64,000 nucleotides of DNA, from the NCBI GenBank assembly GCA_946902875.1, contig OX336340.1, forward strand, positions 8,453,739 to 8,517,738. Direction: 5' to 3'. The notes under the pieces were generated by a model. That model saw only the letters and a program-made list of their open reading frames with translations. It did no database searches and was not told the DNA's origin. This DNA comes from Nematopogon swammerdamellus. Its lineage: Eukaryota > Arthropoda > Insecta > Lepidoptera > Adelidae. The first letter of the stretch is position 1; each line of letters opens with the position of its first letter. A program made the position numbers and the translations under genes. Of the stretch, positions 40,461 to 63,741 are shown piece by piece.

Positions 40461-40719
40461 TGTGATGGAATCACACAAGGTAAAAAGATAAATATATAGC
40501 CAATAGTAATACAAAGCTAAATTATAGAACATTAAAACGTTTCATTAACAAAATAATTTATATTACAATTTAACTAATCACCTAATAAATTCAATCGTGA
40601 CTGCACACTCCACTAAGAAATAAAATGGCGCGAACGGCCATTACAATACGACGCGCAATTAGACAAACAAGAAATATAATAACATCAGTTGGTTCGCATA
40701 TAAAACACTATAGAGCGCC

Positions 40720-40925
40720 GAGGCGGGGAAGGTAGCATGAGGTAATCCTGACACGCGGTGAGAGGGGAACAAGACATGGGCGCGTACGAAACGGCGGAGA
40801 GGTGAGGTAAGAAGGCGCGCGTCTTGCGGGCGCGGGGTCAGAGATCGCGGTATCATCACGCCGTTTGAGCGCGGCATGAGGTAGCGAGTCAAGGAGCGCG
40901 AGTAGTGATTATTTCGCTGCGAGTT
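40720..40925. repeat. GC-rich block of U3, first copy
   Basis: It contains GAGGTAAGAAGGCGCGCG, CTTGCGGGCGCGGGGTCAGA and TATCATCACGCCGTTTGAGC. Related GC-rich sequence is at 41779-41935 in the same LTR, and a clear relative lies in the interior at 47625-47720. Confidence 0.65.
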
Positions 40926-40952
40926 GTTAGTATGAAAGAATGAATTATTGTC

Positions 40953-41550
40953 AAGACACGATCGTGACACGCTCATACTGCGGGGCCACCGTACGTTTTG
41001 TTCCTATGTGTCAGAAACGTGACAAGCTCATACTAATAATTTATTTTTATTTCCATACTAAATTTGTGTCAGGACACGAATGTGACACGGCCATACTACG
41101 AGGCCGCCGTTCGATTTGTTCCTGCATGACACAACCGTGTCCAGCACATACTAATTAATCTAATTTTATCTCCATACTAAAATAGTATCAGGACACGAAT
41201 GTGACACGGCCATACTACGAGGCCACCGTTCGATTTGTTCGAGCGTGTCACAACCGTGTCCAGCCCATACTAAAAATTAAATTCTATCTCCATACGAAAT
41301 TTCGCTCTGTGACACGAACGTGTCACGGCCATACTACGAGGCAACCGAGCGTTTTGTTCCTGCGTGTCAAGAACGTGTCACGGCCATACTAAGAGGGCGC
41401 CGTTCGATTTGTTCCTGCGTGTCCGATTCGTGTCGAGTCCATACTAATGATTCAATTTAATCTCCATACTAAATTCGTGTCAGGACACGAATGTGACACG
41501 GCCATACTATGAGGTCGCTGGTCTATTTGTTCCTGCGTGTCTGGAATCTG
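40953..41550. repeat. U3 dyad-rich tandem array
   Basis: About seven diverged units contain GTGACACGGCCATACTACGA, CCGTTCGATTTGTTCCTGCG, TGTCA and CCATACTAA. Several junctions are palindromic, the best being GTGACACGAACGTGTCAC (41309-41326), a perfect 8-bp-arm dyad with AA at the centre. Two to three more units occur at 42405-42675 just upstream of the promoter. Such repeated dyads resemble clustered binding sites for a dimeric protein, but no factor can be named. Confidence 0.75.
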
Positions 41551-42404
41551 GACATGACGGAGTTTATGGGAATTTGAAGTTTCGTGATCTCTGTGAAGAT
41601 ATCGCACAGGGTCTAAAATTATTTTAATAATTATTTATTAATGATTCAAACTAATACACTAAACATTTTATAAAGGGAAGAGTATATAAACAAAGTACCA
41701 GTTATTAAACAAAAACATAAAATAAAACAAAACAACGTTTCATTGAGTATGACGCCAACATTCAAATAAATATCCGTTGGAGCGTGCGCGCGGGGCGGAG
41801 AGAGGTATGAGGTAAACAAGACAAGGGGTGAGGTATTACCGAGCTGCGGGCGCGCGTGGGCCGCGGGGCGAGGCGGAGCGACCTGAGGTAATTTGTCAAG
41901 CGGTGCGGGAGGGGTTTTCGTTAAGCGGTGTTAGTATGAAGGAATGGTTTCGTGTCCTGACATGAATAAAACACGACGATGGTAAGGAGATTTCGATTGG
42001 TTTCTGCGTGTCCAGGTTCCGTACATGAATAGTATTATCAAACACGGAAGATGGTATCACGCATGTACAGGAATTAATATATAGACAATAAGAAAACTAA
42101 CAACTTGGAACGTTAGCATTTTAAATGAAAATACTCGAAGAATATAGACGATATTAAACAAAAATATATAAATAAAACACTCCGTTATGGCGCTAAAAGT
42201 CGATTTATTAATAGAGCACATGTAATAACATCAATTAATTTATATAACAAAAGCAACAGTTCTCTGCATGCGGAGATGCACAATGGGTGCGGGGAAGTGG
42301 TGTTAAAACCCCCGAAGTAGAGGTAAATCGCATCGCTGACGAGCGAAACAGCTTTAGGTACCATGTGGAAGGTACGAAGAGGGTTTGTTTTCCCTCCAAA
42401 ATCG

Positions 42405-42675
42405 AATTTATATCGTGTCACAAACGTGTCCAGTTCATACTAAAAACATAAAATTATCCTCCATACAAAATTACGAGTCCGGACAGAAACGTGACACGGC
42501 CATACTACGAGGCAGCCGATCGATTTGTTCCTGCGTGACACAAACGTGTCCAGCCCATACTAAAAATCGAAATTCAATCTCCATACAAAATCGCGCTCCG
42601 TGACACGAACGTGTCATGGCCATACTAGGAGGCCACCGTTCGATTTGTTCCTGCGTGTCAGGATTGTGACACGAG
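42405..42675. repeat. Promoter-proximal U3 dyad array
   Basis: Same units as at 40953-41550 (GAAACGTGACACGGCCATAC, GATTTGTTCCTGCG, CACGAACGTGTCATGG), ending 8 bp before the TATA box. Confidence 0.75.
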
Positions 42676-42682
42676 GAAAGAT

Positions 42683-42748
42683 TATAAAAGGAGAGGGAGG
42701 GGAGCGTGGGGAGTTCAGTCTGTTTTGGGAGTCGAAGGAGACGGTCGT
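42683..42748 (+). promoter_or_regulatory. LTR core promoter: TATA box, arthropod initiator, DPE-like word
   Basis: TATAAAAG begins at 42683. TCAGTC at 42715-42720 fits the arthropod initiator with A+1 at 42717, 34 nt downstream of the first T of the TATA box. GGTCGT at 42743-42748 matches the DPE consensus but sits one base early (+27). A purine-rich GGAGAGGGAGGGGAGCG lies between TATA and Inr. It defines the probable U3/R boundary. The 3' LTR carries the same promoter at 61048-61113. Confidence 0.75.
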
Positions 42749-42766
42749 GCGTATTTAGCGAGAGCC

Positions 42767-42781
42767 CAGGTACGAAAGTTA
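42767..42781 (+). promoter_or_regulatory. Candidate splice donor in the R leader
   Basis: CAG|GTACGA lies 53 nt after the inferred start. The 16-mer CCAGGTACGAAAGTTA recurs exactly at 45607-45622, downstream of the primer-binding site. Confidence 0.4.
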
Positions 42782-42784
42782 GTA

Positions 42785-42903
42785 CGGCTTCGCTCGCGTG
42801 AGTTTTCGAATAAGTTCGGGAAAGAAGTATCGCTCGGCTTCGCTCGCGTGTATTTTCGATTGGGTTTTCCTAGTGAATAATTTCACTCGGCTTCGCTCGC
42901 GTG
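42785..42903 (+). repeat. Triplicate CGGCTTCGCTCGCGTG motif
   Basis: The exact 16-mer occurs at 42785-42800, 42835-42850 and 42888-42903 (spacings 50 and 53), each followed by a TTTTCGA/TTTTTGA block. It is the same word as the reverse complement of the Helitron 3' ends elsewhere in the window (e.g. 17909-17926). Confidence 0.9.
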
Positions 42904-42980
42904 TATTTTTGATTGGGTTTTCTTAGTAAATGAATTTGGTAAAAAACCCCGGTGATTGAAATTAGTTTAATTTCGTGAAT

Positions 42981-43920
42981 ATTAGTGTGGGAATTTCTGT
43001 AAAGCTTTCGGAGTTGCAAATGAAGGTTGAGCTGGATTTTGTAATTTTGGGGGTGATATAGGGGTTTTCAACTAGTTTTACGGAAAATATTTTGGATGTT
43101 CTTTTTGAGCCTTTTGAGTTCTGGATGAAGGTCGAGCTGGATTCTGGAATCTTGACTGGTGATGGAAGGACTTCCAAAGAACTTTTACAATGACACTATG
43201 TCCGAACTGGCCTACCATGAGGACTGGTACATTGGGAAGGTTTTCTTAGTTCATAAATGATTTTGTAAAAACCGGTGAATAAAGTTTGTTTGTTTCGTAA
43301 ATTTTAGTGTGGGAATTTCTGTAAAGCTTTCGGAGTTGCAAATGAAGGTTGAGCTGGATTTTGTAATTTTGGGGGTGATATAGGGGTTTTCAACTAGTTT
43401 TACGGAAAATATTTTGGATGTTCTTTTTGAGCCTTTTGAGTTCTGGATGAAGGTCGAGCTGGATTCTGGAATCTTGACTGGTGATGGAAGGACTTCCAAA
43501 GAACTTTTACAATGACACTATGTCCGAACTGGCCTACCATGAGGACAGGTACATTGGGAAGGTTTTATTTTATATTAAAATATAATGGACTGTGACCTGA
43601 TCATAAATTTCACGTACATAAAGGAAGTCAGTGAATAGAGTTTGTTTGATTCGTGAATTTTAGTGTGGGAATTTCTGTAAAGCTTTCGGAGTTGCAAATG
43701 AAGGTTGAGCTGGATTTTGTAATTTTGGGGGTGATATAGGAATTTTCAACTAGGTTGCGAATTATATTTTGGATGTTCTTTTTGAGCCTTTTGAGTTCTG
43801 GATGAAGGTTGAGCTGGATTCTGGAATCTTGACTGGTGATGGAAGGATTTCCAAAGAACTTTTACAATGACACTATGTCCGAACTGGCCTGCCATGAGGA
43901 CTAGTACATTGGGAAGGTAT
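42981..43920 (+). repeat. Three ~264-bp tandem-type repeats in R
   Basis: Cores 42981-43244, 43302-43565 and 43657-43920 are nearly identical, with period 322 then 356 because linkers differ. Landmarks are GTGTGGGAATTTCTGTAAAG, GATGAAGGTCGAGCTGGATT and CACTATGTCCGAACTGGCCT. Each core has an internal half-repeat (GATGAAGG...GAGCTGGATT twice). Short minus-strand frames recur in each unit (82, 71 codons) only because the DNA is repeated. Confidence 0.9.
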
Positions 43921-44653
43921 TTTAAAATATAGAGAAGATTAAAAGAAACAAAACCCGATCTTTAAATTCGTAAATCATACGTATATAAGAGTGTTTGAAC
44001 CACGCGTAATTATTAAAAAATATGTCGAATTTAAATATGTAAAATCAGTGGTTTTACCGTATTTTGATATAAAAGTATATTTTTATTAAGTGTTAACTTC
44101 GCGATTAGATTCAGTGGCGGGTGTTGTGGTTTCGTTTGAATTTATTGTTTTACGCTATTCTATTTGTAATGGTGTTTTATTTAAGGTGATTTTAGTGAAT
44201 CGTGTCAGACCGGTTAGGATAGTGGAATTCAAAGGTAAATTTTGTAATATATATGCATATGCAACATACTGGCTAGTTACGTTTTAGGACGTAGGGAGAT
44301 TGCGTAAATCAGGTTTAAATATACCTGTATAGGTTATGTAGATTATGACCAGCACACCATTTTAATAAACCCTTAAGAAAATATTCCTAATTGATTTCGG
44401 TGAAAGGTGGACCCCTGACCGCATCATTTGGAATAAAACAATTTCTGTAGGTATATCAATAGATAGCCACAGAAATATAAACCATAACATATACACTATA
44501 CACGCACAATTAAAAGCATACACTTATGCCTTTAGGGAGGACAAAAGAATATCTTTTGAACTCCAACATAACACTACGAGATTAAATTGGTAAATCTGTC
44601 TGAAGATGTATATTTTGTACAGATCAGAAAACGGGGACTCCTAGGGACAAATA

Positions 44654-44792
44654 ATAAATTTGTAGCTTAAGTACAAATTTATCTGCGTTGGGAGTCACGG
44701 GGACTGGCGATGGATAAATATCGTATGGACCGAGGGTCCATACGAATTTAGTGGGGCCAGTTCCACAAACCCCTTCAAAAGGGGTCAATAAA
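44654..44792 (+). terminator. Three consecutive hairpins ending at AATAAA (candidate R 3' end)
   Basis: Stems: ATAAATTTGTA / TACAAATTTAT (44654-44682), TCGTATGGACC / GGTCCATACGA with a 3-nt loop (44721-44745), and CCCCTT / AAGGGG (44770-44784). AATAAA follows at 44787-44792 with a GT-rich GTTTGTATTGTTG downstream element. This is a strong candidate for the polyadenylation region. The same set is in the 3' LTR at 63019-63157. Confidence 0.65.
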
Positions 44793-45116
44793 AGTTTGTA
44801 TTGTTGAAGTTCTAAAATTTAGAAGAAAATATAAAATAATAGATTTCATCTATTGAACAGCACAACAAAATTAAGCTATCAAGTAATACATTGATCATAA
44901 TTTAATAATAACAATAACACAAACATCAGAACACTTTCATTTTGAATTTTGGCGGGTCTCACAAGCTCGCAAGCGAGGTACGTGAGCGCGCTGTCGAAGC
45001 GTGCACATAGAACACAGAGGGAAACCAGAAGGGTTTAATGACTATAGATGAATGAGCAATTAGTTTGGTAAGTGCTTTAATGTTGATATTAGAATTTACT
45101 AGAATAGATTTAGGAA

Positions 45117-45341
45117 ATGAGAGTTAGTACTCTGAGTTATTACGGTACACAACGGCTTCCTGAAAAGGAAGTAATAATTGGGTCCATTTTACAGGAATTA
45201 TGTGTACGAATTAGCGACACTGTTTCTGACAAACCTAGAGATCACTTGAAAGTTATACGCTGGCCATATTTCGATTCTTTATATTCTAGTTGTTCTAGAG
45301 CTAAAGAGTTGATTTTTGATAATTCTGCCTTTAATATCTAA
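45117..45341 (+). CDS. Small ORF in U5 (74 codons), truncated in the 3' LTR
   Basis: An ATG frame ending TAA 45339-45341 with protein-like composition (QRLPEKEVIIGSILQELCVR and later DHLKVIRWPYFDSLYSSCS). It is upstream of the primer-binding site, so in genomic RNA it would be leader sequence. In the 3' LTR one T-to-A change (45310 versus 63675) turns Leu into a stop. No family is recognised. May be a uORF or chance. Confidence 0.3.
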   Translation: MRVSTLSYYGTQRLPEKEVIIGSILQELCVRISDTVSDKPRDHLKVIRWPYFDSLYSSCSRAKELIFDNSAFNI

Positions 45342-45377
45342 GGAAAAACAATAGGTATAGGGGAGAGGTTATTACAG

Positions 45378-45391
45378 TGGTGCCGTGACTC
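45378..45391 (+). promoter_or_regulatory. Primer-binding site (tRNA-His type)
   Basis: TGGTGCCGTGACTC starts 1 nt after the LTR ...TTACA|G. It is the complement of GAGTCACGGCACCA, the 3' end of animal tRNA-His (acceptor GTCACGGCA plus CCA). The match is 14 of 14, and complementarity then stops. Strong support for LTR polarity. Confidence 0.8.
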
Positions 45392-45497
45392 AGTGATGAA
45401 GAAAGAAAGAGGGGTTTAAAAAAGGAAAAAAAAAAAATAATACAATTTAAGGAGAAATTAATTTTTTTTTACCACGTCCAGTTTTGTGGTCACGGCG

Positions 45498-45640
45498 CAG
45501 GTTATTACAGTAGTGCGCGTGACCAGCATATAAAAAAAAATTATGTAAAAATAAGTTCTTTTTTTAGTTATAGTAGTGTTATCATAAATCCATGGAATTC
45601 TAAGGTCCAGGTACGAAAGTTATCGCGGGTGTGCCCGTGA
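45498..45640 (+). repeat. Duplicated LTR-end/PBS-like sequence and leader 16-mer
   Basis: AGGTTATTACAGTAGTGCGC, then GTGACCAGCAT (45498-45529) repeats the true LTR/PBS junction at 45367-45391 with changes. It resembles the fly-type tRNA-His complement TGGTGCCGTGACCAGG. A third PBS-like GTGCCCGTGACCA is at 45631-45643, next to the 16-mer CCAGGTACGAAAGTTA (45607-45622). A partial duplication of the leader is the simplest explanation. Confidence 0.6.
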
Positions 45641-45643
45641 CCA

Positions 45644-46030
45644 TGGTTTAGGAAAGTTTAAAATGTGTAGATATATATATATAAACGTTTTGTAATGGTC
45701 TGACACGAGAAATCTTATTATTTTGTGCCAAAACGTAATTTGCGAGCGAATTGTATGGTTACGATTCGTAATGTAAGTCTAGGCGTGCCCAGTCTACTGC
45801 CAGTAAACATCGGAGCAGTTTCCAGCAGATGACATCTAACTATGGTTTGGTCCATAGCAACAATGTGAGTTATTCCATTATCCGGCGAGATACAAAATAA
45901 GTGTTTCTTTTCAGAGGGAAAATGTTGTACGTAATTGTGAAATGAATTACATGACCTACGCAATTACATCGTCATAAGTATGTTATTATCCATTTATTAT
46001 AAAAAGAAATTTTAATGTCACTTGCATAAT
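45644..46030. other. Internal region, nothing recognised
   Basis: An AT-rich stretch (TATATATATATAAACG at 45671-45686) and a minus-strand 81-codon frame (45718-45963) without motif. Confidence 0.4.
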
Positions 46031-46032
46031 GA

Positions 46033-46191
46033 TTATTTGTTCTATGGAAAAGTGGAACTGGAGAATTATTGATTGATGAGCGCTTGGCCAAGGCCACAGA
46101 ATACTTGCGGGCGCAGGGCTACCAAATTTTTGAAAGACTAGTGTGGACTGGTTTTAAAGATGAAGCATGTTTGGGTGCATTGTGTGTTTAG
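46033..46191 (+). pseudogene. Short protein-like remnant of unknown family
   Basis: Between a TGA (46030-46032) and a TAG (46189-46191) the frame reads LWKSGTGELLIDERLAKATE, then LRAQGYQIFERLVWTG and FKDEACLGALCV, with very protein-like composition and no ATG. In another frame just after, HCVFREIRAKGFGKFN (within 46160-46555) may continue it after a frameshift. It could be a relic of a coding region lost by this element. No domain is recognised. Confidence 0.35.
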
Positions 46192-47590
46192 AGAAATTCG
46201 TGCTAAAGGGTTTGGGAAGTTTAATCTGACTTATTTAATTATATTGTTCAAAAAAAAAAAAAAAGGGGAAATAGGAAATAATAATAATATGTGGTGCACG
46301 GAGTCGTATTATACAGATGTTGTTTATGTATGTGTCACATTATGCATTGAATTGTTTTGGAATAAAACAAACAGATACCAAAGTCCCTGTAGAGCAGCGC
46401 CGGTTGCTCTATTTGCCTGGTTTGTCGGAGGGGGAAGCGTGTGTTGTGTGTATGTATGTATGATTTCTATTACTTTGTTATTATGTGGAAATTACAATCA
46501 CGAAATTTGGAGTAAGAAGGTGGAATATTTTTGGCAACCCTACACAAGTTTGTAAATTTCGTGTTGATTAGGCCCATGAGGAGAGAACCATGGTCAAGAA
46601 AGATTGATTTATGGGTGCACGTGTTGTACTGTTTGTGTTTGATCATTAGTTTCGTTGGGCGTAAGTGTACGAATGACTCTTATCTCTTTCCCACTAGTAT
46701 AAAGTGTATGCAATGCAAGTAAGAGTTAGAACGAGACAGTAGACTAGAGCGCTATTTTAGACTTGCTCTTCTAGTGGGGTATGAATGAGAGAGAGGGAGA
46801 TACGACTTATATACGAGACTAACAAAAGTTAGAGAATTTAGCCACGTGATCGGTGCAGGTGTTCGGTTTAGACAAAAAAAATGGAGAAGCGCGTGGTTTA
46901 GCTCAGATTGCTAATGCATTGATGCTTGTCTGGTTTGTGTACATTGGTAAAAGAGTGGAATGAATATTGGTATATATATAATTGTCAGAGGAAATGAAAT
47001 AGCAGTGCTGAGAAAGAAAAAAAAAATTTTTTTTTTCATGTTTAGGTAAACGAAATGAATAGTGAATGATGAGTAGGTAAATGTATGTTAGATTTTACTG
47101 TTAATTTTTTGGGTAATTTGTGTATTTTTAAATGTGTGCTTAATAAACTGTGCGAGTATCATACCACAGTGGATGTTTGTATATGAAATGGTTTTACTTG
47201 ATTGAGAATAAATCAATACATATTGATTTATTACTTCGTGACTTTATGTGTTGCTGTGCGATAAGACGACGGACTAGCCACCTCTCGTTTTGTCATGACT
47301 TACTCGAATGTTGTACAGACGGATGCGTTTTGTACTGTCGTGCGTAGTTACTGGAAAAAGTGTCGCAACTGTACTTGCGACGTGCTACACCTCAGTGGTG
47401 AGTAGCTGTGACAACGTGTCTTTCGTTTTGTTGAAGATAAAGATTACATATTTATCTAGTATGAATGTTTGTGTACGGTTTGACTGGATGGATTGTCAAC
47501 GCACGTTGACTAGACCGTTTTGATCATTTTGTGACGCTGGGACATACGCTCATTGGACGGATTGTTGTTATCTTAACATGATTCAAGTAT
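46192..47590. other. Internal region without recognised gene
   Basis: AT/GT-rich. Contains AGCGCCGGTTGCTCTATTTG (46397-46416), related to GGCACCGGTTGCTCTGCTTG at 52050-52069. Also contains an inverted CTCTTTCCCACTAGT/CTAGTGGGGTATGA pair (46684-46698 and 46772-46786), and homopolymer A (46250-46263) and T runs. Open frames have no motifs. Confidence 0.4.
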
Positions 47591-47591
47591 A

Positions 47592-47815
47592 CTATGCGGA
47601 GACTCTGTTGAATTGATGACCGAGCAGGGCGTAGCTCGCGCGCGCGTCCTGCGGGCGCGGAGACAGAGTTCGCAACACCATCACGCCGTTGGAGGTGCGG
47701 CGTGGTTGGCGAAGTAATTGAGGAATGGGAAGGCCATTAGCGATGTTAACAGTAGTACGGTTCTTCTGTTGTGTCAAGTATCTCGTCGGGAAAACAATGC
47801 GCAGAAAATACAATT
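47592..47815 (+). repeat. LTR-derived segment inside the interior
   Basis: CGCGCGCGTCCTGCGGGCGC, GGAGACAGAGTTCGC and ACACCATCACGCCGTTGGAG parallel the U3 GC block at 40815-40880 (CGCGCGTCTTGCGGGCGCGG ... TATCATCACGCCGTTTGAG). It is diverged, so older than the insertion itself. Confidence 0.65.
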
Positions 47816-48350
47816 TATTTTGTCATGCACTAAGTCTTGAGATGTGTATGGGTTGAGTGATCGGCGTTGTGCCTCGGTTAATATAGTATTAAGCGGCATA
47901 GCATAGAATATTACAAGTTGTAGGATGCAGGTTGGTGCACAAAAAGCGAATGAGGAAATCGTTTTGCGGAGCCTACGCTGTCTGCTTGTATGTCTGCCTG
48001 TTCTACTAAAGTTGAAATTTGTTTCAGGGTAAATGTAGAGTTCTGTAGAATGGTTGTGTCTGTCCGTTCTACTAGAATTGACAGTTAATTCGGAAGGAAT
48101 GAGGAGTTCTGTAATAAGCGTATGTAGATTTTGTTTCTGTCAGTACTCCTGGAGTGCAATTGAGGGTTTTATTGTTGTGCTGTGTCATTGTAAAGCATTG
48201 GGATGCTATGAGTTCGTTTTACGTCCGGTTCTATAGTGCCACTTAAACATTAATAATATGAACATGCCGGCTACAGCGTCAGAAACTTGCAGTTTCATAA
48301 GAACAAATGAGAGGCCGGACGGTTACAATTTGGAATTGTCGCCAGGCGAG

Positions 48351-48710
48351 GCGAATTTGTTGGGGCGCATCGGGAGATTTTTTTACTGATGAATTAAAAA
48401 ACTTTTATCAAGTAATATGTTAAGAAGAGAGTATAGTTCTACGATAATATATAGGAGTGATTGTGAGTGAGGCGGAACTTTGCGGATGACGAATCGCGCT
48501 TTGTAGGGAAAGAAAAAAAAAAAACGAACTTGCGATGTTTTGCTTCTTGCGAATTTGTTGGGGCGCATCGGGAGATTTTTTTACTGAAGAATTAAAATTT
48601 TATCAAGTAATATGTTGTGAAGAGAGAGTAGTTTTATGCTAGTAGAAAGGGGTGACTGTGCGTGAGGCGAAACTCTGCGGATGGCGAGTGACGGACTGGC
48701 CACTTCTCAC
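48351..48710 (+). repeat. ~198-bp tandem duplication
   Basis: GCGAATTTGTTGGGGCGCAT, CGGGAGATTTTTTTACTGA, ATCAAGTAATATGTT and GTGAGGCG-AACT-TGCGGATG recur at 48549 onward. The second copy ends with GACGGACTGGCCACTTCTC, also seen at 47270-47288 (GACGGACTAGCCACCTCTC). Confidence 0.8.
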
Positions 48711-51700
48711 TTTGGCACGGTTATACTGTTAGGTAGTGCGGGAAAAGGACCCTGTATCTTGTTGCAATGTGAAGGTTGACTTGCCTGGATGCAGCATGTT
48801 GGTATGTGTGGGAGATAGGTTTTATGGATGCCATGTCGGAGTGTTGGTTATCTGTGGAATTGAATATACGTTAGTGTGGTCAGCAGTATAACGCTGTTTA
48901 TTTCACTGCTTGAGATGTGGGTTGGAATAAAATATATATATCAGTTTGTGATTGTATGTATTTGTCAAGCAGTAATGTATATAATTGGCTGTAGAGCAGA
49001 AGTTTGATATTAGATGTAACGTTTCAGCTAATTAGAACATTATAATTGTGCCAATTAATATAGATAATGGAAGGGACTACAGTTTTACAACGATTCAGAA
49101 AGATGAAGTTAAAAGTGTTTGTTGAAAATCAAGCAAGAAGGCTATTAAGCGCCTAGTCCGAGGCGACACGCAATAGAATTACTAGTTGATGGTTTGTTGC
49201 GGTGTGTTGTCGAAGGCGTATTTCACTATCAAACAGTGTAGATCCATTTTATCAACTTAGTTATGAATTGGAAATGTTGGATGGTATGTATTTGAGGAAG
49301 TATGTTTGAGCTAATGTAGGTATATGGATTCCGTGTTAACTGAAGTCATATATTTTGTGTATGGGAACGAAGCATAAATATTTGTCTAGTTGTATGAGTT
49401 TGTTCATTTTATAAAAGCGAGTACATGGATATATTAGTATTTATGTATTCTTACAACGTGATTGGGAGTTAGAAGATAAGATAGTCGTATCTTGTCTCAC
49501 TAACATTATTGGGGAAATTGAATGGATGTGATGACGGTCTAATAGAAAACGTATGCATTAACTTTTCTATGTAGAAATTCAATTCTGAAGATGTGTATTA
49601 TTGGATTCCATTAATTATCTTATGTCAACGTATTGACTGGAAGTGGAGGTTTTCCTATATTAAGTATCCTGTCTGCGGATGTCGGAGCAAGACACTGTTG
49701 TCCAGAAAAAATTTTTTGCCTGACGTACTCAGCCCATTGCCACTGGAGGTGGACAGTAGATGTTGCCTGTTTTATGGGTCGGTTGTATGTGAGCTGTTTG
49801 CTTGTGAAAATTACGTGAATGAAGGGGTGGGTCTAAGAGTTGCCGGAAATAATACATTGGTGCCACCATTTTGAATAGAGGATTGATGCGGCTGTATGGT
49901 TGATTCGAGTTTGGTTCAGTTCAGTGTGGCCAGCATTAACGGGGTAGGTAGGCATTCGTGTGAAACCTGTTCCGCCAAATTATTAGAGCAAATAGCTTAG
50001 ATATTATAAGTAGATTATTAATTTAATTTAAATACGATTTAGATTTTGAAAAGAATGAAGTGAGGTCGTATATTGGCCGGTCATTCATTATATTCACACA
50101 AGATGCAAAACCGTGGCGGCATTTCAGTTCTAGGCTTTCTGAGAATCAATATGCGATTGGATAATCATTTAAATGTGGATGTTATAGAAAAGCTTTATAG
50201 AAAATCCATACTCCAAACTGATCTTCTTATGTGGAAATCTGTAAAATGATAAAACTAGTATGAAATGCCGGGATATTTAATTCCACATTTTATCTTGAAA
50301 ATCATTTAAAAATGGATAATTCCATATAAATGGTAACGTTGCTGTGGTTGTGTATTAACTGACTCAGGGCGCCCGGTTCAAAAATATTTGAAGGAATATG
50401 GATCTTATCGCGAACAATAAGAACCATTGCTAGTGTTTGTTTTGCTTTCACAGCGTAAGGGGACCAGACTTGCGTACTAAAACAAATAAGTACCAACCTT
50501 ACGGAGTGAATTTCGGAGTAAATCCGAAAAGGAGAAAAAAAAAAAGGGGAAAGAAAATAAGTCGAATGGAGAAAGATTTGGTAGGGTACTCAAATACTCA
50601 AGAACCCGGGAAAATGGGAAAAGAAGGAAAAAGGAAAAAAAATTTAAAATTAGGAAATAAACATACCCACAGTTCACAATGTTCACATCATAGTGACATC
50701 TGAAAGGAAGTGGTTAAGAGGCAGGGAGGGAGTGAGGGGTTATGAAAAATGCTTAATGATTTTGCAGAAGCAAATTATACTTATACAATACTAGTATTAT
50801 GTTTGGAAGTGAGTTTTGCGAAACATGGAGTATTCTATTTACTTGCCATCTATTGGTGTATTAGTGAAGTTTTGACATTACAACGTAGAAAATTTTGTTG
50901 GGCATTGTTATACATAGAGAGATAGGTGTCGCTGGAACAAAATAATTATATTTAAAATTCAAATTAAACTTTTCCTCCCTTTTACAAAAGTAAACATCAG
51001 GGCCCCTGCCGTGCTGGTTTCGCTCGCACGACGAGTTCGGGTTGCGTTCGACTCGATCGATCGCACGAAGCAAATTATTTTGGTACCGGCGTACGGGTGA
51101 GTGCGCATGCGAATGTTGTACAGGTGACGAAATTATCGAGCGAGTGTCGATCCACCAATCTTGCCACTATTAAATTTTACTAAATGTATTATGCTACCTA
51201 GAATGCAAAGCGCTCATTTTGTCAGGTATCAAACGGTCAATATAGTATGTATACTATTTGTCAGAATCTTTATGTTAATTAAAAGAGGAAAAAGAGTATT
51301 GACTAAATTGAAAACGCGTATAAATTGAACACCTCGATATTTAAGAGTAGCTATTTAGTATTGGTAAAAATTACATCGTGGTAACACACGTGATGTTGGT
51401 TGTCGGTCGGTCAGCCAGTTGTGTGAGTGATGATGACAATCATTTTGAATCTCTTCCCCTCAACCCTCCGCCTTTCCTCCAGCCATATTACCTAGCCACA
51501 AAAATACCCCGATAACGGTACTAACGAGGTGAGACCGCGGTGAAGTGCGGAGGAAAGCGCATTTATTCGAGGAGAGGAGGTGCCTAGCCTATAATGCCTA
51601 TATAGAAATTCCGACGGGTAATACATAGCTGTAGATACCTAACTATCTAAAAATAAATAACTCCTGTATGTACCTATCTATTATTATCATACTTGGTTAT

Positions 51701-52840: not shown

Positions 52841-52895
52841 TTAGTCGGCAGCGGCCTGTGTCAGACTGCTGCTGGACGTGGGCATTTCCAGGGGT
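52841..52895 (-). repeat. Possible nested LINE-tail relic
   Basis: The minus strand reads GGAAATGCCCACGTCCAGCA, then GCAGTCTGACACAGGCCGCTG, similar to the LINE ending at 30545-30585. Short and diverged. Confidence 0.35.
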
Positions 52896-54600
52896 TTCCC
52901 ACCTCGCTCGGTGTTTCACTTTAATTTTATTCTGCTCTTGCCTACCTATGGGGTTATAGGTGCACTTAACTGAAGGAGGAGCGTTCCATTTTATGCTTAG
53001 GCGTGGTCGACGATCGGGCGTCTGTCTGCTACAGAGTATCGGATAAACGACGAATGTGCTCGGACACTGCATATGATTGCGCAACATTTGTTGGAATGAA
53101 ATTATGGATATTTATTTATATCTGTATGTGTAAGATTGTTTGGATAACTTTTGTTGTAATTGGGCGTTGCCAATGGACGAGCATACTAGAGAAGTAATGG
53201 GTATGCATTCTGAGTGAACGGTTCCGGACGAATGAATGTGTGAGGGGATGATCAGTGCCTGAAACTTTTGAAGTTCGTTACTTCCAGGAATTCATAACGG
53301 AAAGTGTGAATTGGTAAAAGTTTGAATCGAGGTTAAATGATAATTTCTCACAGAATAGTTTGTGAAGTGGAATTGTAAGGGGTATTACGGGGTTTGAGTG
53401 ATTTAGGGGATTAGGCATTGGATGGGTACTTGCTGAAAAAAAAAAAAAAAACGGAGGTAGATTTTAAAAAAAAAAAAAAAGAGGGAAATTTTAAGAGTTA
53501 GTTGTGCAATTAGACCGGTTAATTGCATCGGTTGCGGAGTCCGTGGTGTTGTCCGTAGCATAGTATGGATGTGGTGCCACGTTGGTGCTATTCTTTGGTC
53601 GATTATTAATTTTAAATTTTCCAAATTCCAATAGAACTTAGACTAGGTAAGCATTCGTTGCATGATAAACTTGGGTTTAAGTCTGAAGAGGAGACTCAGA
53701 TGCATGCTGTTATCCAAATTTACAGAATGAATTTCAGATGCGGATGTGTTTATTCTTGAAAGCAAATTCAAGAACCAGTTCAACAATTGAACGAGGAATA
53801 TAATCACAAGTTGTGACAATTGAATAATAATATATGTTGCATGACGTTTTGAAATAAGTAATATTAAGTATATGTGAATATACGAATAATGGTTAGTATA
53901 AAATTGCGTTTTGGCACAAAATATTATAAAATCACTTTAATATGATAATTTAAAAGAATTAAACCACCCCGCTACTGTAGCTTTATTGATTAACTTTAAG
54001 AAGTTAGACTGTTTGTTTGGGGATCGATATTGTCTCGGATTTGGAAAAAAAAAAAAATGAGAAGCATCGATTTCTAAGCAATGCTTGGCGTTCTTTGTCT
54101 ATGCTATAAGTAGAATATTTGCTTGCAGCAAAGCGAAATAAGAGAAAGAGGAATTCCTGAAAATAGGTCGTGATAATTAAGAAATGAAATCCTAGTAAAA
54201 TAAAAAAAGAATAAATAATAATAATATTTCCAAAACGAAAAAAAAAATTTTTGCTATAAAATTAAAGTAAAATTGTTAAAATTGATAAAATAAGTTACTA
54301 AACACTAACAAAACTTAATCAATTCATATAATACAAACAACATTTTAAGTTAATCACATTGAAAAAGAGAAAACAGGGATTCCCAAGTTTCTTTAAAGAA
54401 ACTACATATAGGAAATTCTATTCAAAAAAATTCTAAGTTAAAATAAAGACAACACAAGCATTATTCTACACTTAAAAATTTATAATGGCATAGACAAATA
54501 ATATTATTATATGCTAAATTACTATTTTGTTCTGAAACCAAATAATTAGAAATTAATTATAAATTAAAAAATTTGCAGATTTAAGAAGAATTCACACATA
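52896..54600. other. Internal region, increasingly A-rich, no recognised gene
   Basis: Contains A14-A15 runs (53436-53450, 53466-53480), then AT-rich sequence with many stops up to the coding-like ORF. Confidence 0.4.
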
Positions 54601-54661
54601 TACAAGACATTATACAACATTCAGACATAAATTTACAAATAGTACTACATGGACCACACAC

Positions 54662-54931
54662 ATGGAACACGAGCAGCAAAGAAGGGCAAAGAAGGAGGTT
54701 TTGAGAAGATCAGAAAAGAGACATGATGAATCAGAAGGAAATAGAGTCAAAAAGGAAAGAATTAATGCAGTTCCAAGAAGAAGAAGAGAAAGAGGAACAA
54801 TTACTAAAAACAAAAGTCTACAGACTGGACATAACAAAAAGAATGTTAACAATAATGGAAGAAGAACACCAAGAAACAATAGGAACAGCGGAGGAACAGG
54901 AGCCAAAAGTAGGGAGCAGACTTCAACATGA
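54662..54931 (+). CDS. Overlapping basic ORF, 89 aa
   Basis: ATG 54662 to TGA 54929-54931. The first 20 residues look coiled-coil-like, whereas the remainder (RRRRERGTITKNKSLQTGHN, GRRTPRNNRNSGG) is Arg/Asn-rich. That part may be an out-of-frame reading of the purine-rich 168-aa gene. It overlaps 54723-55229 by 209 nt. Either the true N-terminus followed by a frameshift, or chance. Confidence 0.25.
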   Translation: MEHEQQRRAKKEVLRRSEKRHDESEGNRVKKERINAVPRRRRERGTITKNKSLQTGHNKKNVNNNGRRTPRNNRNSGGTGAKSREQTST

Positions 54932-55229
54932 TTTACACAGAAGACAGAAACGGTTGGAGAAAGACATAACGCTTCACAAAAAAAAATCAAATATCAGGAA
55001 AGTCAGGAGAGAGAAACTAATATCAGAATATGAAGGACAACTTCAACAAATCACACAGTTTGTGACGACGGAAATGAATTGGTTGTCCAAACAGAAGAGC
55101 AAGAAACAAGAATCAGACGGGCCTGAGAGAGAAGGATCCATCATCAATCCACAGTCAGATTTGATTCCGGTTATAGAAGACTACATAGACCAGAATTTTA
55201 ACCATATAATTAACACATTGGAGTTTTAA
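54723..55229 (+). CDS. Candidate element-encoded coiled-coil protein, 168 aa
   Basis: The longest protein-like frame of the interior runs from ATG 54723 to TAA 55227-55229. Residues 1-30 are Lys/Glu-rich (EEEEKEEQLL), 30-55 fit alternating heptad patterning, and 60-110 are basic (HRRQKRLEKDITLHKKKSNI, RKVRREKL). The last ~30 residues are uncharged or acidic (PQSDLIPVIEDYIDQNFNHI) and end LEF. No CCHC knuckle, DTG, YxDD or DDE motif is seen. In-frame codons extend upstream to 54705. An overlapping +1-related frame (54662-54931) begins with similarly coiled-coil-like residues (MEHEQQRRAKKEVLRRSEKR), so the original N-terminus may lie there with a frameshift between. A Gag-like structural or RNA-binding role is a guess only. 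The hydrophobic antisense frame (54610-54990) is a shadow. Confidence 0.5.
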   Translation: MMNQKEIESKRKELMQFQEEEEKEEQLLKTKVYRLDITKRMLTIMEEEHQETIGTAEEQEPKVGSRLQHDLHRRQKRLEKDITLHKKKSNIRKVRREKLISEYEGQLQQITQFVTTEMNWLSKQKSKKQESDGPEREGSIINPQSDLIPVIEDYIDQNFNHIINTLEF

Positions 55230-55280: not shown

Positions 55281-55648
55281 GTTTTCCATTCATACAGGGG
55301 GTTTTCTATTCATACAGGGTGTTTTCTATTCATACAGGGTGTTTTCCGTTCATACTGGGTGTCCATTCATACAGGGGGTTTTCCATTCATACAGGGGGTT
55401 TTCTATTCATACAGGGTGTTTTCCGTTCATACTGGGTGTCCATTCATACAGGGGGTTTTCCATTCATACAGGGGGTTTTCTATTCATACAGGGTGTTTTC
55501 CGTTCATACTGGTGTCCATTCATACAGGGGGTTTTCTATTCATACAGGGTGTTTTCTATTCATACAGGATGTTTTCCATACATACAGGGTGTTTTCCGTT
55601 CATACTGGGTGTCATCCATTCATACAGGGTGTTTACCTTTCATACAGG
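55281..55648 (+). repeat. 20-bp minisatellite (GTTTTCTATTCATACAGGGT), about 18 units
   Basis: Units vary at few sites (CTATT/CCATT/CCGTT, CAGGGT/CAGGGG/CTGGGT), and several are shortened to 16-19 bp. The unit has no stop in any frame and 20 is not a multiple of 3. All three plus frames are therefore open for 110-129 codons (FSIHTGG-type peptide), which is a by-product. Confidence 0.95.
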
Positions 55649-56035
55649 TTTTGGGTTAATTCACGTGCGTCCCAGCGTGAATTCCTTATAAAAAGGGGGG
55701 TCACTTAACATTCTCTGTTAGGGTTTTAGGTTAATTCACGAGCGTCCCAGCGTGAATTCCTTATAAAAAAGGGGGGTCACTTAACGTTCTCTGTTAGGGT
55801 TTTAGGTTAATTCACGTGCGTCCCAGCGTGAATTCCTTATAAAAAAGGGGGGTCACTTAACGTTCTCTGTTAGGGTTTTAGGTTAATTCACGTGCGTCCC
55901 AGCGTGAATTCCTTATAAAAAGGGGGGTCACTTAACATTCTCTGTTAGGGTTTTAGGTTAATTCTTGTGCGTCCCAGCTAGAATTCCTTTATTATAATAT
56001 GAGGACATTAACATGTTCGATAGGGTTTAAAATTA
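55649..56035 (+). repeat. 75-76-bp tandem array with a TATA-like box in each unit
   Basis: Four good units and one decayed unit. Each has TTAATTCACGTGCGTCCCAG, GCGTGAATTCC (AATTCACG...CGTGAATT arms with a CACGTG E-box), CTTATAAAAAGGGGGGTCAC and CATTCTCTGTTAGGG. TATAAAA starts at 55687, 55762, 55838 and 55914. The regular spacing of a dyad upstream of a TATA-like word is promoter-like, but no initiator is evident. Confidence 0.85.
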
Positions 56036-56109
56036 AATCTCGCTAGTTCTGGCGTGATGCATCTGTGATAAAAATTACAATAAAGAACACAAGTACACAT
56101 TGTTAATAT

Positions 56110-56430
56110 AAGTTTAATTTTAAGGAGATTGATTTTTGTTGTATTTTATGTAATTTAACAGTTTGTAAACAGGTTTAATTTCATAGAAGAAGATTAATAA
56201 AATAAATTTTGTTGCATTTTATGTAATTTAACAGGTTGTAAACAGGTTTAATTTTATAGAAGAAAGTTAATAAAACGATTTTTGTTGCATTTCATGTAAT
56301 TCAACAGGTTGTAACAGGTTTAATTTTATTTAAGAAGATTGAAAATATGATTTTGATACATTTTATGTAATTTAACAGTATGTAAACATGTTTAATTTTA
56401 TAGAAGAAGACTAATAAAATGATTTAATAA
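56110..56430 (+). repeat. ~74-bp tandem array with AATAAA motifs, about 4.5 units
   Basis: Units contain ATTTTATGTAATTTAACAGG, TTGTAAACAGGTTTAATTTT, ATAGAAGAAGATTAATAAAA. AATAAAA occurs in three successive units (56196, 56268 and 56412 regions). Decayed A/T homopolymers follow to 56720. Confidence 0.85.
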
Positions 56431-57369: not shown

Positions 57370-57372
57370 AAT

Positions 57373-57410
<38 letters not shown>
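57370..57410. repeat. Long A-homopolymer
   Basis: An uninterrupted A run of over 30 bases ending at CGGGAAATAA. Possibly a trace of an inserted retroposon tail. Confidence 0.8.
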
Positions 57411-57411
<1 letters not shown>

Positions 57412-58260: not shown

Positions 58261-58824
58261 GGTAAAGGATGAGACTAGAGGTTCCTGCACTGTTGGGAAA
58301 TCTGTTAGAGGCAGAATATAGGGATCTAAGGCTTTGAGGTGATAACTTTTGCCTAAATTCCTAGATTTATTAATAATAAACTAAATCAATTACACTAAAA
58401 TATTTGTTTAATGTAGTATTGGCACGAGCTGCAAATGGAAGATAAGGGAAAGAGTGCAAACATGGTCTAAGCCGGAGGTGGTAAGGTTGTGGTATGCATT
58501 CTAAAAATCTTTTCTCTTTAAGCTAAGGGAGATAAATCCTAAGCTGGAGGGTAAGAACTTCCTAAAGCACGTGGACAGATGGTGTTGAAAAAAAAAAAAC
58601 ACACAAATTAAAAATTATAGAAGAAGGGGGTCTCTGGAAGGGAACTTGAACCCTAACAGTGATAAATAATTATATATACAAACTTCTTGGAAGGGAACAA
58701 TAAAACCCTAACAAAGAAGAAGTAATTTTCAAGATCATAATGTATATAGCTTCTTAACGAGATCAAGCGTCACGGAATGAGGTTCCGTTGACTTTGCTTC
58801 GTTACGAACCTCTATGCGGGCGAC
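58261..58824. other. Region before the 3' LTR, no canonical polypurine tract
   Basis: The base run next to the LTR (CTCTATGCGGGCGAC) is not polypurine. The nearest good purine tract, GAAGAAGGGGG (58620-58630), is ~195 nt upstream. A duplicated TGGAAGGGAAC...AACCCTAACA pair (58634-58660, 58689-58711) lies here. Confidence 0.6.
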
Positions 58825-61800
58825 TGTGATGGAATCACACAAGGTAAAAAAGATAAATATATAGCCAATAGTAATACAAAGCTAAATTATAGAACATTAA
58901 AACGTTTCATTAACAAAATAATTTATATTACAATTTAACTAATCACCTAATAAATTCAATCGTGACTGCACACTCCACTAAGAAATAAAATGGCGCGAAC
59001 GGCCATTACAATACGACGCGCAATTAGACAAACAAGAAATATAATAACATCAGTTGGTTCGCATATAAAACACTATAGAGCGCCGAGGCGGGGAAGGTAG
59101 CATGAGGTAATCCTGACACGCGGTGAGAGGGGAACAAGACATGGGCGCGTACGAAACGGCGGAGAGGTGAGGTAAGAAGGCGCGCGTCTTGCGGGCGCGG
59201 GGTCAGAGATCGCGGTATCATCACGCCGTTTGAGCGCGGCATGAGGTAGCGAGTCAAGGAGCGCGAGTAGTGATTATTTCGCTGCGAGTTGTTAGTATGA
59301 AAGAATGAATTATTGTCAAGACACGATCGTGACACGCTCATACTGCGGGGCCACCGTACGTTTTGTTCCTATGTGTCAGAAACGTGACAAGCTCATACTA
59401 ATAATTTATTTTTATTTCCATACTAAATTTGTGTCAGGACACGAATGTGACACGGCCATACTACGAGGCCGCCGTTCGATTTGTTCCTGCATGACACAAC
59501 CGTGTCCAGCACATACTAATTAATCTAATTTTATCTCCATACTAAAATAGTATCAGGACACGAATGTGACACGGCCATACTACGAGGCCACCGTTCGATT
59601 TGTTCGAGCGTGTCACAACCGTGTCCAGCCCATACTAAAAATTAAATTCTATCTCCATACGAAATTTCGCTCTGTGACACGAACGTGTCACGGCCATACT
59701 ACGAGGCAACCGAGCGTTTTGTTCCTGCGTGTCAAGAACGTGTCACGGCCATACTAAGAGGGCGCCGTTCGATTTGTTCCTGCGTGTCCGATTCGTGTCG
59801 AGTCCATACTAATGATTCAATTTAATCTCCATACTAAATTCGTGTCAGGACACGAATGTGACACGGCCATACTATGAGGTCGCTGGTCTATTTGTTCCTG
59901 CGTGTCTGGAATCTGGACATGACGGAGTTTATGGGAATTTGAAGTTTCGTGATCTCTGTGAAGATATCGCACAGGGTCTAAAATTATTTTAATAATTATT
60001 TATTAATGATTCAAACTAATACACTAAACATTTTATAAAGGGAAGAGTATATAAACAAAGTACCAGTTATTAAACAAAAACATAAAATAAAACAAAACAA
60101 CGTTTCATTGAGTATGACGCCAACATTCAAATAAATATCCGTTGGAGCGTGCGCGCGGGGCGGAGAGAGGTATGAGGTAAACAAGACAAGGGGTGAGGTA
60201 TTACCGAGCTGCGGGCGCGCGTGGGCCGCGGGGCGAGGCGGAGCGACCTGAGGTAATTTGTCAAGCGGTGCGGGAGGGGTTTTCGTTAAGCGGTGTTAGT
60301 ATGAAGGAATGGTTTCGTGTCCTGACATGAATAAAACACGACGATGGTAAGGAGATTTCGATTGGTTTCTGCGTGTCCAGGTTCCGTACATGAATAGTAT
60401 TATCAAACACGGAAGATGGTATCACGCATGTACAGGAATTAATATATAGACAATAAGAAAACTAACAACTTGGAACGTTAGCATTTTAAATGAAAATACT
60501 CGAAGAATATAGACGATATTAAACAAAAATATATAAATAAAACACTCCGTTATGGCGCTAAAAGTCGATTTATTAATAGAGCACATGTAATAACATCAAT
60601 TAATTTATATAACAAAAGCAACAGTTCTCTGCATGCGGAGATGCACAATGGGTGCGGGGAAGTGGTGTTAAAACCCCCGAAGTAGAGGTAAATCGCATCG
60701 CTGACGAGCGAAACAGCTTTAGGTACCATGTGGAAGGTACGAAGAGGGTTTGTTTTCCCTCCAAAATCGAATTTATATCGTGTCACAAACGTGTCCAGTT
60801 CATACTAAAAACATAAAATTATCCTCCATACAAAATTACGAGTCCGGACAGAAACGTGACACGGCCATACTACGAGGCAGCCGATCGATTTGTTCCTGCG
60901 TGACACAAACGTGTCCAGCCCATACTAAAAATCGAAATTCAATCTCCATACAAAATCGCGCTCCGTGACACGAACGTGTCATGGCCATACTAGGAGGCCA
61001 CCGTTCGATTTGTTCCTGCGTGTCAGGATTGTGACACGAGGAAAGATTATAAAAGGAGAGGGAGGGGAGCGTGGGGAGTTCAGTCTGTTTTGGGAGTCGA
61101 AGGAGACGGTCGTGCGTATTTAGCGAGAGCCCAGGTACGAAAGTTAGTACGGCTTCGCTCGCGTGAGTTTTCGAATAAGTTCGGGAAAGAAGTATCGCTC
61201 GGCTTCGCTCGCGTGTATTTTCGATTGGGTTTTCCTAGTGAATAATTTCACTCGGCTTCGCTCGCGTGTATTTTTGATTGGGTTTTCTTAGTAAATGAAT
61301 TTGGTAAAAAACCCCGGTGATTGAAATTAGTTTAATTTCGTGAATATTAGTGTGGGAATTTCTGTAAAGCTTTCGGAGTTGCAAATGAAGGTTGAGCTGG
61401 ATTTTGTAATTTTGGGGGTGATATAGGGGTTTTCAACTAGTTTTACGGAAAATATTTTGGATGTTCTTTTTGAGCCTTTTGAGTTCTGGATGAAGGTCGA
61501 GCTGGATTCTGGAATCTTGACTGGTGATGGAAGGACTTCCAAAGAACTTTTACAATGACACTATGTCCGAACTGGCCTACCATGAGGACTGGTACATTGG
61601 GAAGGTTTTCTTAGTTCATAAATGATTTTGTAAAAACCGGTGAATAAAGTTTGTTTGTTTCGTAAATTTTAGTGTGGGAATTTCTGTAAAGCTTTCGGAG
61701 TTGCAAATGAAGGTTGAGCTGGATTTTGTAATTTTGGGGGTGATATAGGGGTTTTCAACTAGTTTTACGGAAAATATTTTGGATGTTCTTTTTGAGCCTT

Positions 61801-63741
61801 TTGAGTTCTGGATGAAGGTCGAGCTGGATTCTGGAATCTTGACTGGTGATGGAAGGACTTCCAAAGAACTTTTACAATGACACTATGTCCGAACTGGCCT
61901 ACCATGAGGACAGGTACATTGGGAAGGTTTTATTTTATATTAAAATATAATGGACTGTGACCTGATCATAAATTTCACGTACATAAAGGAAGTCAGTGAA
62001 TAGAGTTTGTTTGATTCGTGAATTTTAGTGTGGGAATTTCTGTAAAGCTTTCGGAGTTGCAAATGAAGGTTGAGCTGGATTTTGTAATTTTGGGGGTGAT
62101 ATAGGAATTTTCAACTAGGTTGCGAATTATATTTTGGATGTTCTTTTTGAGCCTTTTGAGTTCTGGATGAAGGTTGAGCTGGATTCTGGAATCTTGACTG
62201 GTGATGGAAGGATTTCCAAAGAACTTTTACAATGACACTATGTCCGAACTGGCCTGCCATGAGGACTAGTACATTGGGAAGGTATTTTAAAATATAGAGA
62301 AGATTAAAAGAAACAAAACCCGATCTTTAAATTCGTAAATCATACGTATATAAGAGTGTTTGAACCACGCGTAATTATTAAAAAATATGTCGAATTTAAA
62401 TATGTAAAATCAGTGGTTTTACCGTATTTTGATATAAAAGTATATTTTTATTAAGTGTTAACTTCGCGATTAGATTCAGTGGCGGGTGTTGTGGTTTCGT
62501 TTGAATTTATTGTTTTACGCTATTCTATTTGTAATGGTGTTTTATTTAAGGTGATTTTAGTGAATCGTGTCAGACCGGTTAGGATAGTGGAATTCAAAGG
62601 TAAATTTTGTAATATATATGCATATGCAACATACTGGCTAGTTACGTTTTAGGACGTAGGGAGATTGCGTAAATCAGGTTTAAATATACCTGTATAGGTT
62701 ATGTAGATTATGACCAGCACACCATTTTAATAAACCCTTAAGAAAATATTCCTAATTGATTTCGGTGAAAGGTGGACCCCTGACCGCATCATTTGGAATA
62801 AAACAATTTCTGTAGGTATATCAATAGATAGCCACAGAAATATAAACCATAACATATACACTATACACGCACAATTAAAAGCATACACTTATGCCTTTAG
62901 GGAGGACAAAAGAATATCTTTTGAACTCCAACATAACACTACGAGATTAAATTGGTAAATCTGTCTGAAGATGTATATTTTGTACAGATCAGAAAACGGG
63001 GACTCCTAGGGACAAATAATAAATTTGTAGCTTAAGTACAAATTTATCTGCGTTGGGAGTCACGGGGACTGGCGATGGATAAATATCGTATGGACCGAGG
63101 GTCCATACGAATTTAGTGGGGCCAGTTCCACAAACCCCTTCAAAAGGGGTCAATAAAAGTTTGTATTGTTGAAGTTCTAAAATTTAGAAGAAAATATAAA
63201 ATAATAGATTTCATCTATTGAACAGCACAACAAAATTAAGCTATCAAGTAATACATTGATCATAATTTAATAATAACAATAACACAAACATCAGAACACT
63301 TTCATTTTGAATTTTGGCGGGTCTCACAAGCTCGCAAGCGAGGTACGTGAGCGCGCTGTCGAAGCGTGCACATAGAACACAGAGGGAAACCAGAAGGGTT
63401 TAATGACTATAGATGAATGAGCAATTAGTTTGGTAAGTGCTTTAATGTTGATATTAGAATTTACTAGAATAGATTTAGGAAATGAGAGTTAGTACTCTGA
63501 GTTATTACGGTACACAACGGCTTCCTGAAAAGGAAGTAATAATTGGGTCCATTTTACAGGAATTATGTGTACGAATTAGCGACACTGTTTCTGACAAACC
63601 TAGAGATCACTTGAAAGTTATACGCTGGCCATATTTCGATTCTTTATATTCTAGTTGTTCTAGAGCTAAAGAGTAGATTTTTGATAATTCTGCCTTTAAT
63701 ATCTAAGGAAAAACAATAGGTATAGGGGAGAGGTTATTACA
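58825..63741 (+). repeat. 3' LTR, 4917 bp
   Basis: Same sequence as 40461-45376 with an offset of 18,364/18,365. The two differences noticed are an extra A in an A-run near the start (58849-58855 region) and A for T at 63675. Carries the promoter at 61048-61113, hairpins and AATAAA at 63019-63157, and the triple CGGCTTCGCTCGCGTG at 61150-61268. The U5 ORF ends at TAG 63674-63676. Confidence 0.9.

What the first reader, a model, noticed from the sequence alone, without database searches (positions are those of the whole stretch)
40461..63741. A 23-kb LTR element with 4.9-kb LTRs and no visible gag-pol
Seen: terminal direct repeats of 4916/4917 bp, TG...CA ends, a 4-bp TSD, a tRNA-His PBS, and a 13.4-kb interior with no RT, integrase or protease motif. 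Known: large non-coding LTR elements (LARDs) and giant LTR elements (Ogre, Burro) exist in plants and planarians, and insect LTRs are usually a few hundred bp to ~2 kb. Inference: this is a giant, probably trans-mobilised lepidopteran family that may be undescribed.
Basis: partly seen in the sequence, partly recalled or inferred. Interest (0 to 1): 0.9.

Follow-up and report, generated by a model that had tools for sequence, protein, structure and literature searches.

The report
Gutted copy of giant moth retrotransposon
This is a real 23-kb jumping element that has lost its own enzyme genes, but roughly 28-kb relatives that still have those genes sit elsewhere in the same insect genome and most likely move it, so it is a parasitic offshoot of an unusually large but recognisable retrotransposon family.

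Summary
In detail: two LTRs (40461-45376, 58825-63741; 99.96% identical), TG..CA ends, GTTT target duplications, no pol inside. In the same 699-Mb genome, three of seven fetched relatives are 28-29 kb long and carry a 5.06-kb segment missing from the window copy, encoding gag (317 aa), a G-patch-PR-RT-RH-IN Ty3/gypsy pol (1193 aa) and a 142-aa orphan ORF. The window copy lost it in one deletion, keeping about 17 gag codons and a 174-aa orphan ORF. The same joint occurs at three more loci with their own target duplications, so the deleted form has inserted repeatedly. All 11 elements checked have perfect 4-bp duplications; LTR pairs of 8 elements differ by 0-1 substitutions. At least 40 places hold an RT of 99% or more identity. 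Most likely: a young giant Ty3/gypsy family, probably of a lepidopteran, with internally deleted derivatives mobilised in trans. Oddities: no polypurine tract at the 3' LTR, tandem primer-site units, a 9-kb leader, two orphan ORFs.

The parts
40457..40460 (+). target-site duplication GTTT (left)
40461..45376 (+). 5' LTR, 4916 bp, TGTGATGG...TTATTACA, with internal tandem repeats (119-, 120-, 53- and 322-bp units)
45378..45389 (+). primer-binding site, 12-nt match to tRNA-His 3' end
   Evidence: tRNA-His site printed in PMC3253121 (passages)
45502..45527 (+). second LTR-tail unit (TTATTACA) followed by the imperfect primer site that is the first site in 9 of 25 copies read
45528..54642 (+). about 9.1-kb leader without recognised coding domain; 99% identical to full-length copy E4
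54643..54699 (+). remnant of gag: first 19 residues of the gag frame (ATG at 54649)
54696..54699 (+). deletion joint with 4-nt microhomology AGGT; about 5.06 kb (gag body, pol, ORF3; L019:4409-9468) is missing here
54705..55229 (+). ORF4, 174 aa, rich in charged residues, no homologue found; retained
55281..56425 (+). tandem-repeat arrays (20/77-, 76- and 73-bp units), alignments to other copies break here
58768..58822 (+). possible hairpin just before the 3' LTR, where a polypurine tract is expected but not seen; last 120 nt identical in 8 of 8 copies
   Evidence: fold not significant: z -1.48, 15 of 200 shuffles as good
58825..63741 (+). 3' LTR, 4917 bp
63742..63745 (+). target-site duplication GTTT (right)

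Best explanation
The window holds a young non-autonomous internal-deletion derivative of a giant Ty3/gypsy LTR retrotransposon (full length about 28 kb, LTRs 4.9 kb). Shown: its LTRs, leader and 3' region are shared with full-length copies; gag, pol and ORF3 are missing through one 5.06-kb deletion relative to them; the same deletion joint sits at four loci with four different target duplications. Inferred: the deletion arose during reverse transcription (template switch at a 4-nt repeat) or in a genomic source copy; transcripts of the deleted copy are packaged by Gag and copied and integrated by the Pol of full-length siblings, which recognise the shared primer site, leader and LTR ends.
For: A segment of 5060 bp (E4) or 5073 bp (E3) at the window's 54696-54699 joint is present in E2, E3 and E4, 3 of 7 relatives fetched. 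In E4 it encodes open gag and pol frames; E2 has frames of 317 and 1193 aa (the latter runs to the stretch's end). Pfam: G-patch, RVP, RVT_1, RNaseH, H2C2, rve; best solved relative Ty3. Unbroken joint in 4 of 40 rows (136 candidates, 40 scored); the three others have TSDs GGGG, CACT, CTAA. All 11 elements checked have perfect 4-bp TSDs. Of 19 LTR pairs, the 5 spaced 23.0 kb or more each contain an RT place, and none of the 14 shorter ones (window included) does. 0-1 substitutions between the LTRs of each of 8 elements. An exact 18-nt tRNA-His-type site stands in 3 of 25 copies read, in two different leader contexts, as copying from the tRNA primer predicts.
Against: No transcript, protein or transposition data; trans-mobilisation is inferred. 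The three sibling copies were read only in 701-bp stretches at both ends and the primer site, plus the 601-bp joint match. They are not a simple clonal series: their primer regions differ from the window's and from each other, and the C7:8535304 sibling is 93-95% identical to the window at the LTR tail and leader but 99% at the LTR start, which suggests recombination. One search scored 40 of 78 candidates, so absence of RT from the short pairs is not proven. One fetched full-length copy, E3, has pol broken in two frames. No polypurine tract was found next to the 3' LTR, so plus-strand priming is unexplained. The 18-nt insect tRNA-His end is recalled, not read from this genome.
Confidence: 0.92

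Rival explanations
1. A LARD-like family that never carried gag-pol and is mobilised by an unrelated LTR element.
For: The window copy alone shows no gag-pol domain.
Against: Siblings with the same LTRs, leader and 3' region carry gag-pol exactly at the joint; 19 residues of the gag frame remain in the window.
Confidence: 0.02
2. The deletion happened in the genome after insertion, locally, and the other same-joint loci reflect gene conversion rather than movement of the deleted form.
For: Four other fetched copies have different internal deletions, some with short homology at the joints (E6 12 nt, E10 26 nt), which DNA repair could also produce; the C7:8535304 sibling looks mosaic.
Against: Four loci with the same joint and different TSDs. 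Gene conversion of a 5-kb gap three times is less simple.
Confidence: 0.05
3. Assembly artefact or false duplication.
For: Near-identical 4.9-kb repeats are a classic source of misassembly.
Against: 19 LTR pairs on 12 contigs in the capped list; 11 of 11 elements checked have perfect TSDs with differing sequences.
Confidence: 0.01

Closest known systems
Ogre giant Ty3/gypsy elements of plants
   Same: 16-25 kb total, LTRs 1.9-6.5 kb, one or two extra ORFs of unknown function (PMC6431247, passages read).
   Different: Animal host; here both accessory ORFs lie after pol and about 9 kb of the interior is leader without recognised coding domain. Sequence relation to Ogre was not tested.
Burro elements of planarians
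   Same: Giant gypsy-like animal elements over 30 kb (PMC6431247, passages).
   Different: Burro has a polyprotein of nearly 5,000 aa with extra domains; here gag and pol are 317 and 1193 aa and the bulk is LTR and non-coding interior.
LARDs (large retrotransposon derivatives)
   Same: Non-autonomous, LTR-flanked, over 4 kb (PMC6696364, passages), relocated in trans (PMC6431247, passages).
   Different: An identifiable deletion of a sibling with gag-pol rather than a separate, conserved non-coding family; keeps one ORF.
Non-autonomous LTR elements of Culex quinquefasciatus with tandem repeats
   Same: Insect LTR elements with tandem repeats and no coding capacity; the same paper reports one element with an atypical primer-site region (PMC3286476, passages).
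   Different: There no master copy was found; here gag-pol siblings are identified. The Culex table rows that I saw have LTRs of 208-337 bp.
G-patch-bearing Ty3/gypsy-type pols of Lepidoptera (e.g. Plutella xylostella P0036)
   Same: 42% identity along nearly the whole pol, G-patch before protease.
   Different: Full element structure of those relatives was not available; LTR length unknown.

Membership tests
LTR retrotransposon | Terminal direct repeats, TG..CA, short fixed TSD | tested here: met
   11 of 11 elements with 4-bp TSD
LTR retrotransposon | tRNA-complementary primer site next to 5' LTR | tested here: met
   12 nt in the window; that 12-nt match is the first site in 11 of 25 copies and an exact 18-nt site (tRNA recalled) in 3 of them (L032, L048, L049); 9 of 25 have GTAGTGCGCGTGACCAGC and 5 have other imperfect forms
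LTR retrotransposon | Polypurine tract immediately before 3' LTR | tested here: not met
   last 120 nt identical in 8 of 8 copies, no purine run at the LTR boundary; nearest run of 9 or more starts at 58713
Ty3/gypsy | PR-RT-RH-IN order in pol | tested here: met
   on the full-length relative E4; best PDB relative is Ty3. Not present in the window copy itself
Ty3/gypsy | placement in an RT phylogeny | not tested
   no tree was built
Endogenous retrovirus / errantivirus | env gene | tested here: inconclusive
   ORF3 and ORF4 have no Pfam match above cut-off and no homologue; no env-like domain among the window's 60 interior ORFs at that sensitivity
LARD | large non-autonomous LTR element without coding capacity | tested here: not met
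   Large and apparently non-autonomous, but a deletion form of a family with gag-pol, and it keeps ORF4; that ORF4 is translated is not shown

The most novel reading that the evidence does not exclude
A giant animal Ty3/gypsy family that starts plus-strand DNA without a conventional polypurine tract (a stretch able to fold into a hairpin lies there instead), carries two lineage-specific orphan genes, and whose primer-site units and internal deletions turn over by template switching, so that parasitic short forms are common (14 of the 19 LTR pairs in the capped list are shorter than full length).
Probability: 0.2. Interest if true: 0.65.

Novelty: new variant of a known kind. Interest (0 to 1): 0.5.

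Why it matters
It shows a giant gag-pol LTR family in an insect together with its own deletion parasites, caught within a very young burst. Non-coding LTR elements reported from Culex lacked an identified master copy (PMC3286476, passages); here the pairing, the joint and repeated insertions of the deleted form can all be read. It also gives a defined case for asking how an element without an evident polypurine tract, and with a 9-kb leader, copies itself.

Tried and rejected
A coding-free LARD family: rejected by siblings with gag-pol. Assembly artefact: rejected. A self-priming mechanism for the imperfect site GTAGTGCGCGTGACCAGC: no complementary stretch of 9 nt or more inside the window's element, and exact 18-nt sites in three other copies point to tRNA-His. 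ORF4 and ORF3 as known proteins: no homologue at E<=1 (105 and 9 candidates), weak Pfam rows only. ORF3 and ORF4 as paralogues: no support. Rfam and ARAGORN on the window: nothing. PHROGs on gag, ORF3 and ORF4: nothing. Gag by sequence: only E 0.014 to Retrotrans_gag and 0.29-0.35 to Arc capsid chains, below an unrelated chain at 0.044. A special fold of the extended primer region: not significant (z -1.09). Not completed because the genome-search machine stayed busy: conservation of ORF4 in diverged copies, the host's tRNA-His gene, copy number of the 3' region. No structure prediction and no tree were run.
Full report
What is there. The interior is 13.4 kb. None of 60 stop-to-stop frames of 58 aa or more matches a Pfam family at E<=0.01.

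Relatives in the same genome. The window lies in G000 (699 Mb, 39 contigs; C8:8453739-8517738). A 1-kb LTR probe gave 743 candidates, of which 40 were scored. The 40 best rows match the full kilobase at 100% (rounded); 38 of them form 19 LTR pairs (window included), two are unpaired in the list; 42 further rows are partial matches. Pair spacing runs from 9.6 to 24.2 kb. Three (E2, E3, E4) contain a segment at window positions 54696-54699 that the window lacks: 5060 bp in E4, 5073 bp in E3, 99.7% identical to each other. The other four (E1, E5, E6, E10) have different internal deletions that also remove it.

The missing segment is gag-pol. In E4 (C12:14482479-14510405, 27.9 kb) it holds nearly all of a 317-aa gag frame, an overlapping 1193-aa pol frame and a 142-aa ORF3; a 174-aa ORF4, which the window keeps, follows. 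Pol matches G-patch, retroviral protease, RVT_1, RNase H, H2C2 zinc binding and rve above their cut-offs; its best solved relative is Ty3. Gag reaches only E 0.014 to Retrotrans_gag, below the cut-off. E2 has frames of the same two lengths, its pol running to the end of the fetched stretch; E3 has pol split in two frames. Of 235 database pols found, 120 were listed; the first 51 are 41-53% identical. Named rows among them are Parnassius mnemosyne, Heliothis virescens, Helicoverpa armigera and Plutella xylostella; named beetle, aphid, bug and pseudoscorpion rows score lower. That is the only evidence here for a lepidopteran host. At least 40 places (78 candidates, 40 scored) hold an RT kilobase of 99% or more identity: 20 share the maximum score and 11 share one lower score, a likely second subfamily.

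The window copy is a deletion derivative that has moved. The joint has a 4-nt microhomology (AGGT) and leaves the first 19 residues of the gag frame. A 601-bp probe across the joint (136 candidates, 40 scored) gave 40 rows: 4 match without a break (the window, C24:13731533, C7:18358887, C7:8535304), 30 match only the 3' part and 6 only the 5' part; some of the last two kinds are the two halves of one copy. The three other unbroken copies have TSDs GGGG, CACT and CTAA. So the deleted form has most likely been inserted at least four times. Against a simple clonal series: primer regions differ among the four, and the C7:8535304 copy is 93-95% identical to the window at the LTR tail and leader but 99% at the LTR start, so recombination between copies is likely. 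Among the 19 pairs, the 5 with full-length spacing (23.0 kb or more) each enclose an RT place, and the 14 shorter ones enclose none, within the limit that 40 of 78 RT candidates were scored.

Age. In eight elements the two LTRs differ by 0-1 substitutions (plus a few gaps, up to 7 nt) over 4.5-4.9 kb. With a recalled lepidopteran rate of about 3e-9 per site and generation, one substitution per pair is some 35,000 generations, so insertions are recent.

Primer site. I read this place in 25 copies: the window, seven, three siblings and 14 picked because they resemble the window's primer region. Taking the first site after the LTR, 11 have the 12-nt tRNA-His match, 9 (all seven, L029, L043) have GTAGTGCGCGTGACCAGC, and 5 have other imperfect forms (L035, L042, L044, L046, L047). 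The sample is therefore not random. The window has an extra 133-bp unit that begins with the better tRNA-His match and ends at a second LTR tail, followed by the imperfect site; L038-L041 have a similar unit of 121-127 bp, L043 has two units of another kind and L042 three. In L032, L048 and L049 (3 of 25) the site is exactly TGGTGCCGTGACCAGGAT, in two different contexts. I read this as renewal of the primer site by copying the tRNA itself, the expected product of LTR reverse transcription; the insect tRNA end is recalled, and its first 12 nt agree with the tRNA-His site printed in PMC3253121 (passages).

What is odd. No purine run abuts the 3' LTR: the last 120 nt are identical in 8 of 8 copies and end ...CTCTATGCGGGCGAC; in so young a family that identity is not by itself evidence of constraint. 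The region can fold into a hairpin, but not significantly better than shuffles (z -1.48, 15 of 200). ORF3 and ORF4 have no homologue in a database of 5.8 billion proteins at the sensitivity of the search. About 9 kb of leader without recognised domains precede gag.

How it most likely works. Shown: shared LTRs, shared leader, gag-pol in siblings, the deleted form at four loci with four TSDs. Inferred: LTR-driven transcripts of the deleted copy are packaged with those of full-length siblings, primed by tRNA-His, reverse transcribed and integrated by sibling Pol; deletions and primer-site tandems arise by template switching.

Comparison with the known. It is a Ty3/gypsy LTR retrotransposon by pol content and order, through its siblings; no tree was built. 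It resembles Ogre in having long LTRs and extra ORFs and exceeds Ogre's 16-25 kb; it differs from Burro, which has an enormous polyprotein (PMC6431247, passages). It works like a LARD but is not a separate coding-free family. G-patch domains in plant Gypsy elements and type D retroviruses are in print (PMC9289625, passages; PMC1224870, passages). Non-coding insect LTR elements without known master copies were reported in Culex (PMC3286476, passages); here gag-pol siblings are present. In the listings of searches of open-access full texts I saw no description of this family; Repbase, Dfam and subscription papers were not searched.

Noticed in passing
window 45369-45527; L038-L043: Tandem units of LTR tail plus primer site: two in the window, L038-L041 and L043, three in L042, suggesting aberrant strand transfer during reverse transcription.
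   Followed up: partly
window 58705-58824: No polypurine tract at the 3' LTR boundary; 120 nt identical in 8 of 8 copies, with a possible but not significant hairpin.
   Followed up: partly
L013:8428-9554: A 1127-bp insertion in copy E2 with terminal inverted repeats (CAGTGTTGCC) and an apparent 8-bp duplication, probably a hAT-like non-autonomous DNA transposon (label recalled).
   Followed up: partly
G000 pol places: Two near-identical pol groups: 20 places at the maximum score and 11 sharing one lower score.
   Followed up: no
window 9433-9771, 10398-10669, 16389-16977, 17643-17896: Arrays of a 68-bp unit (AAGTAACTAAGGGCGAGGCCGAAGG...), in opposite orientations, upstream of the element.
   Followed up: no
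window 23650-24132: A repeat that also lies inside copy E1 (L009:1868-2347) and next to the C24 sibling (L030, first 342 bases in element orientation), probably another mobile element.
   Followed up: no
window 3645-4286 (-): A 213-aa frame with repeated SPSERI-like motifs and no Pfam match.
   Followed up: no
G000:C8:8329966 and window: Another copy of the family lies about 164 kb upstream of the window's element on the same strand.
   Followed up: no
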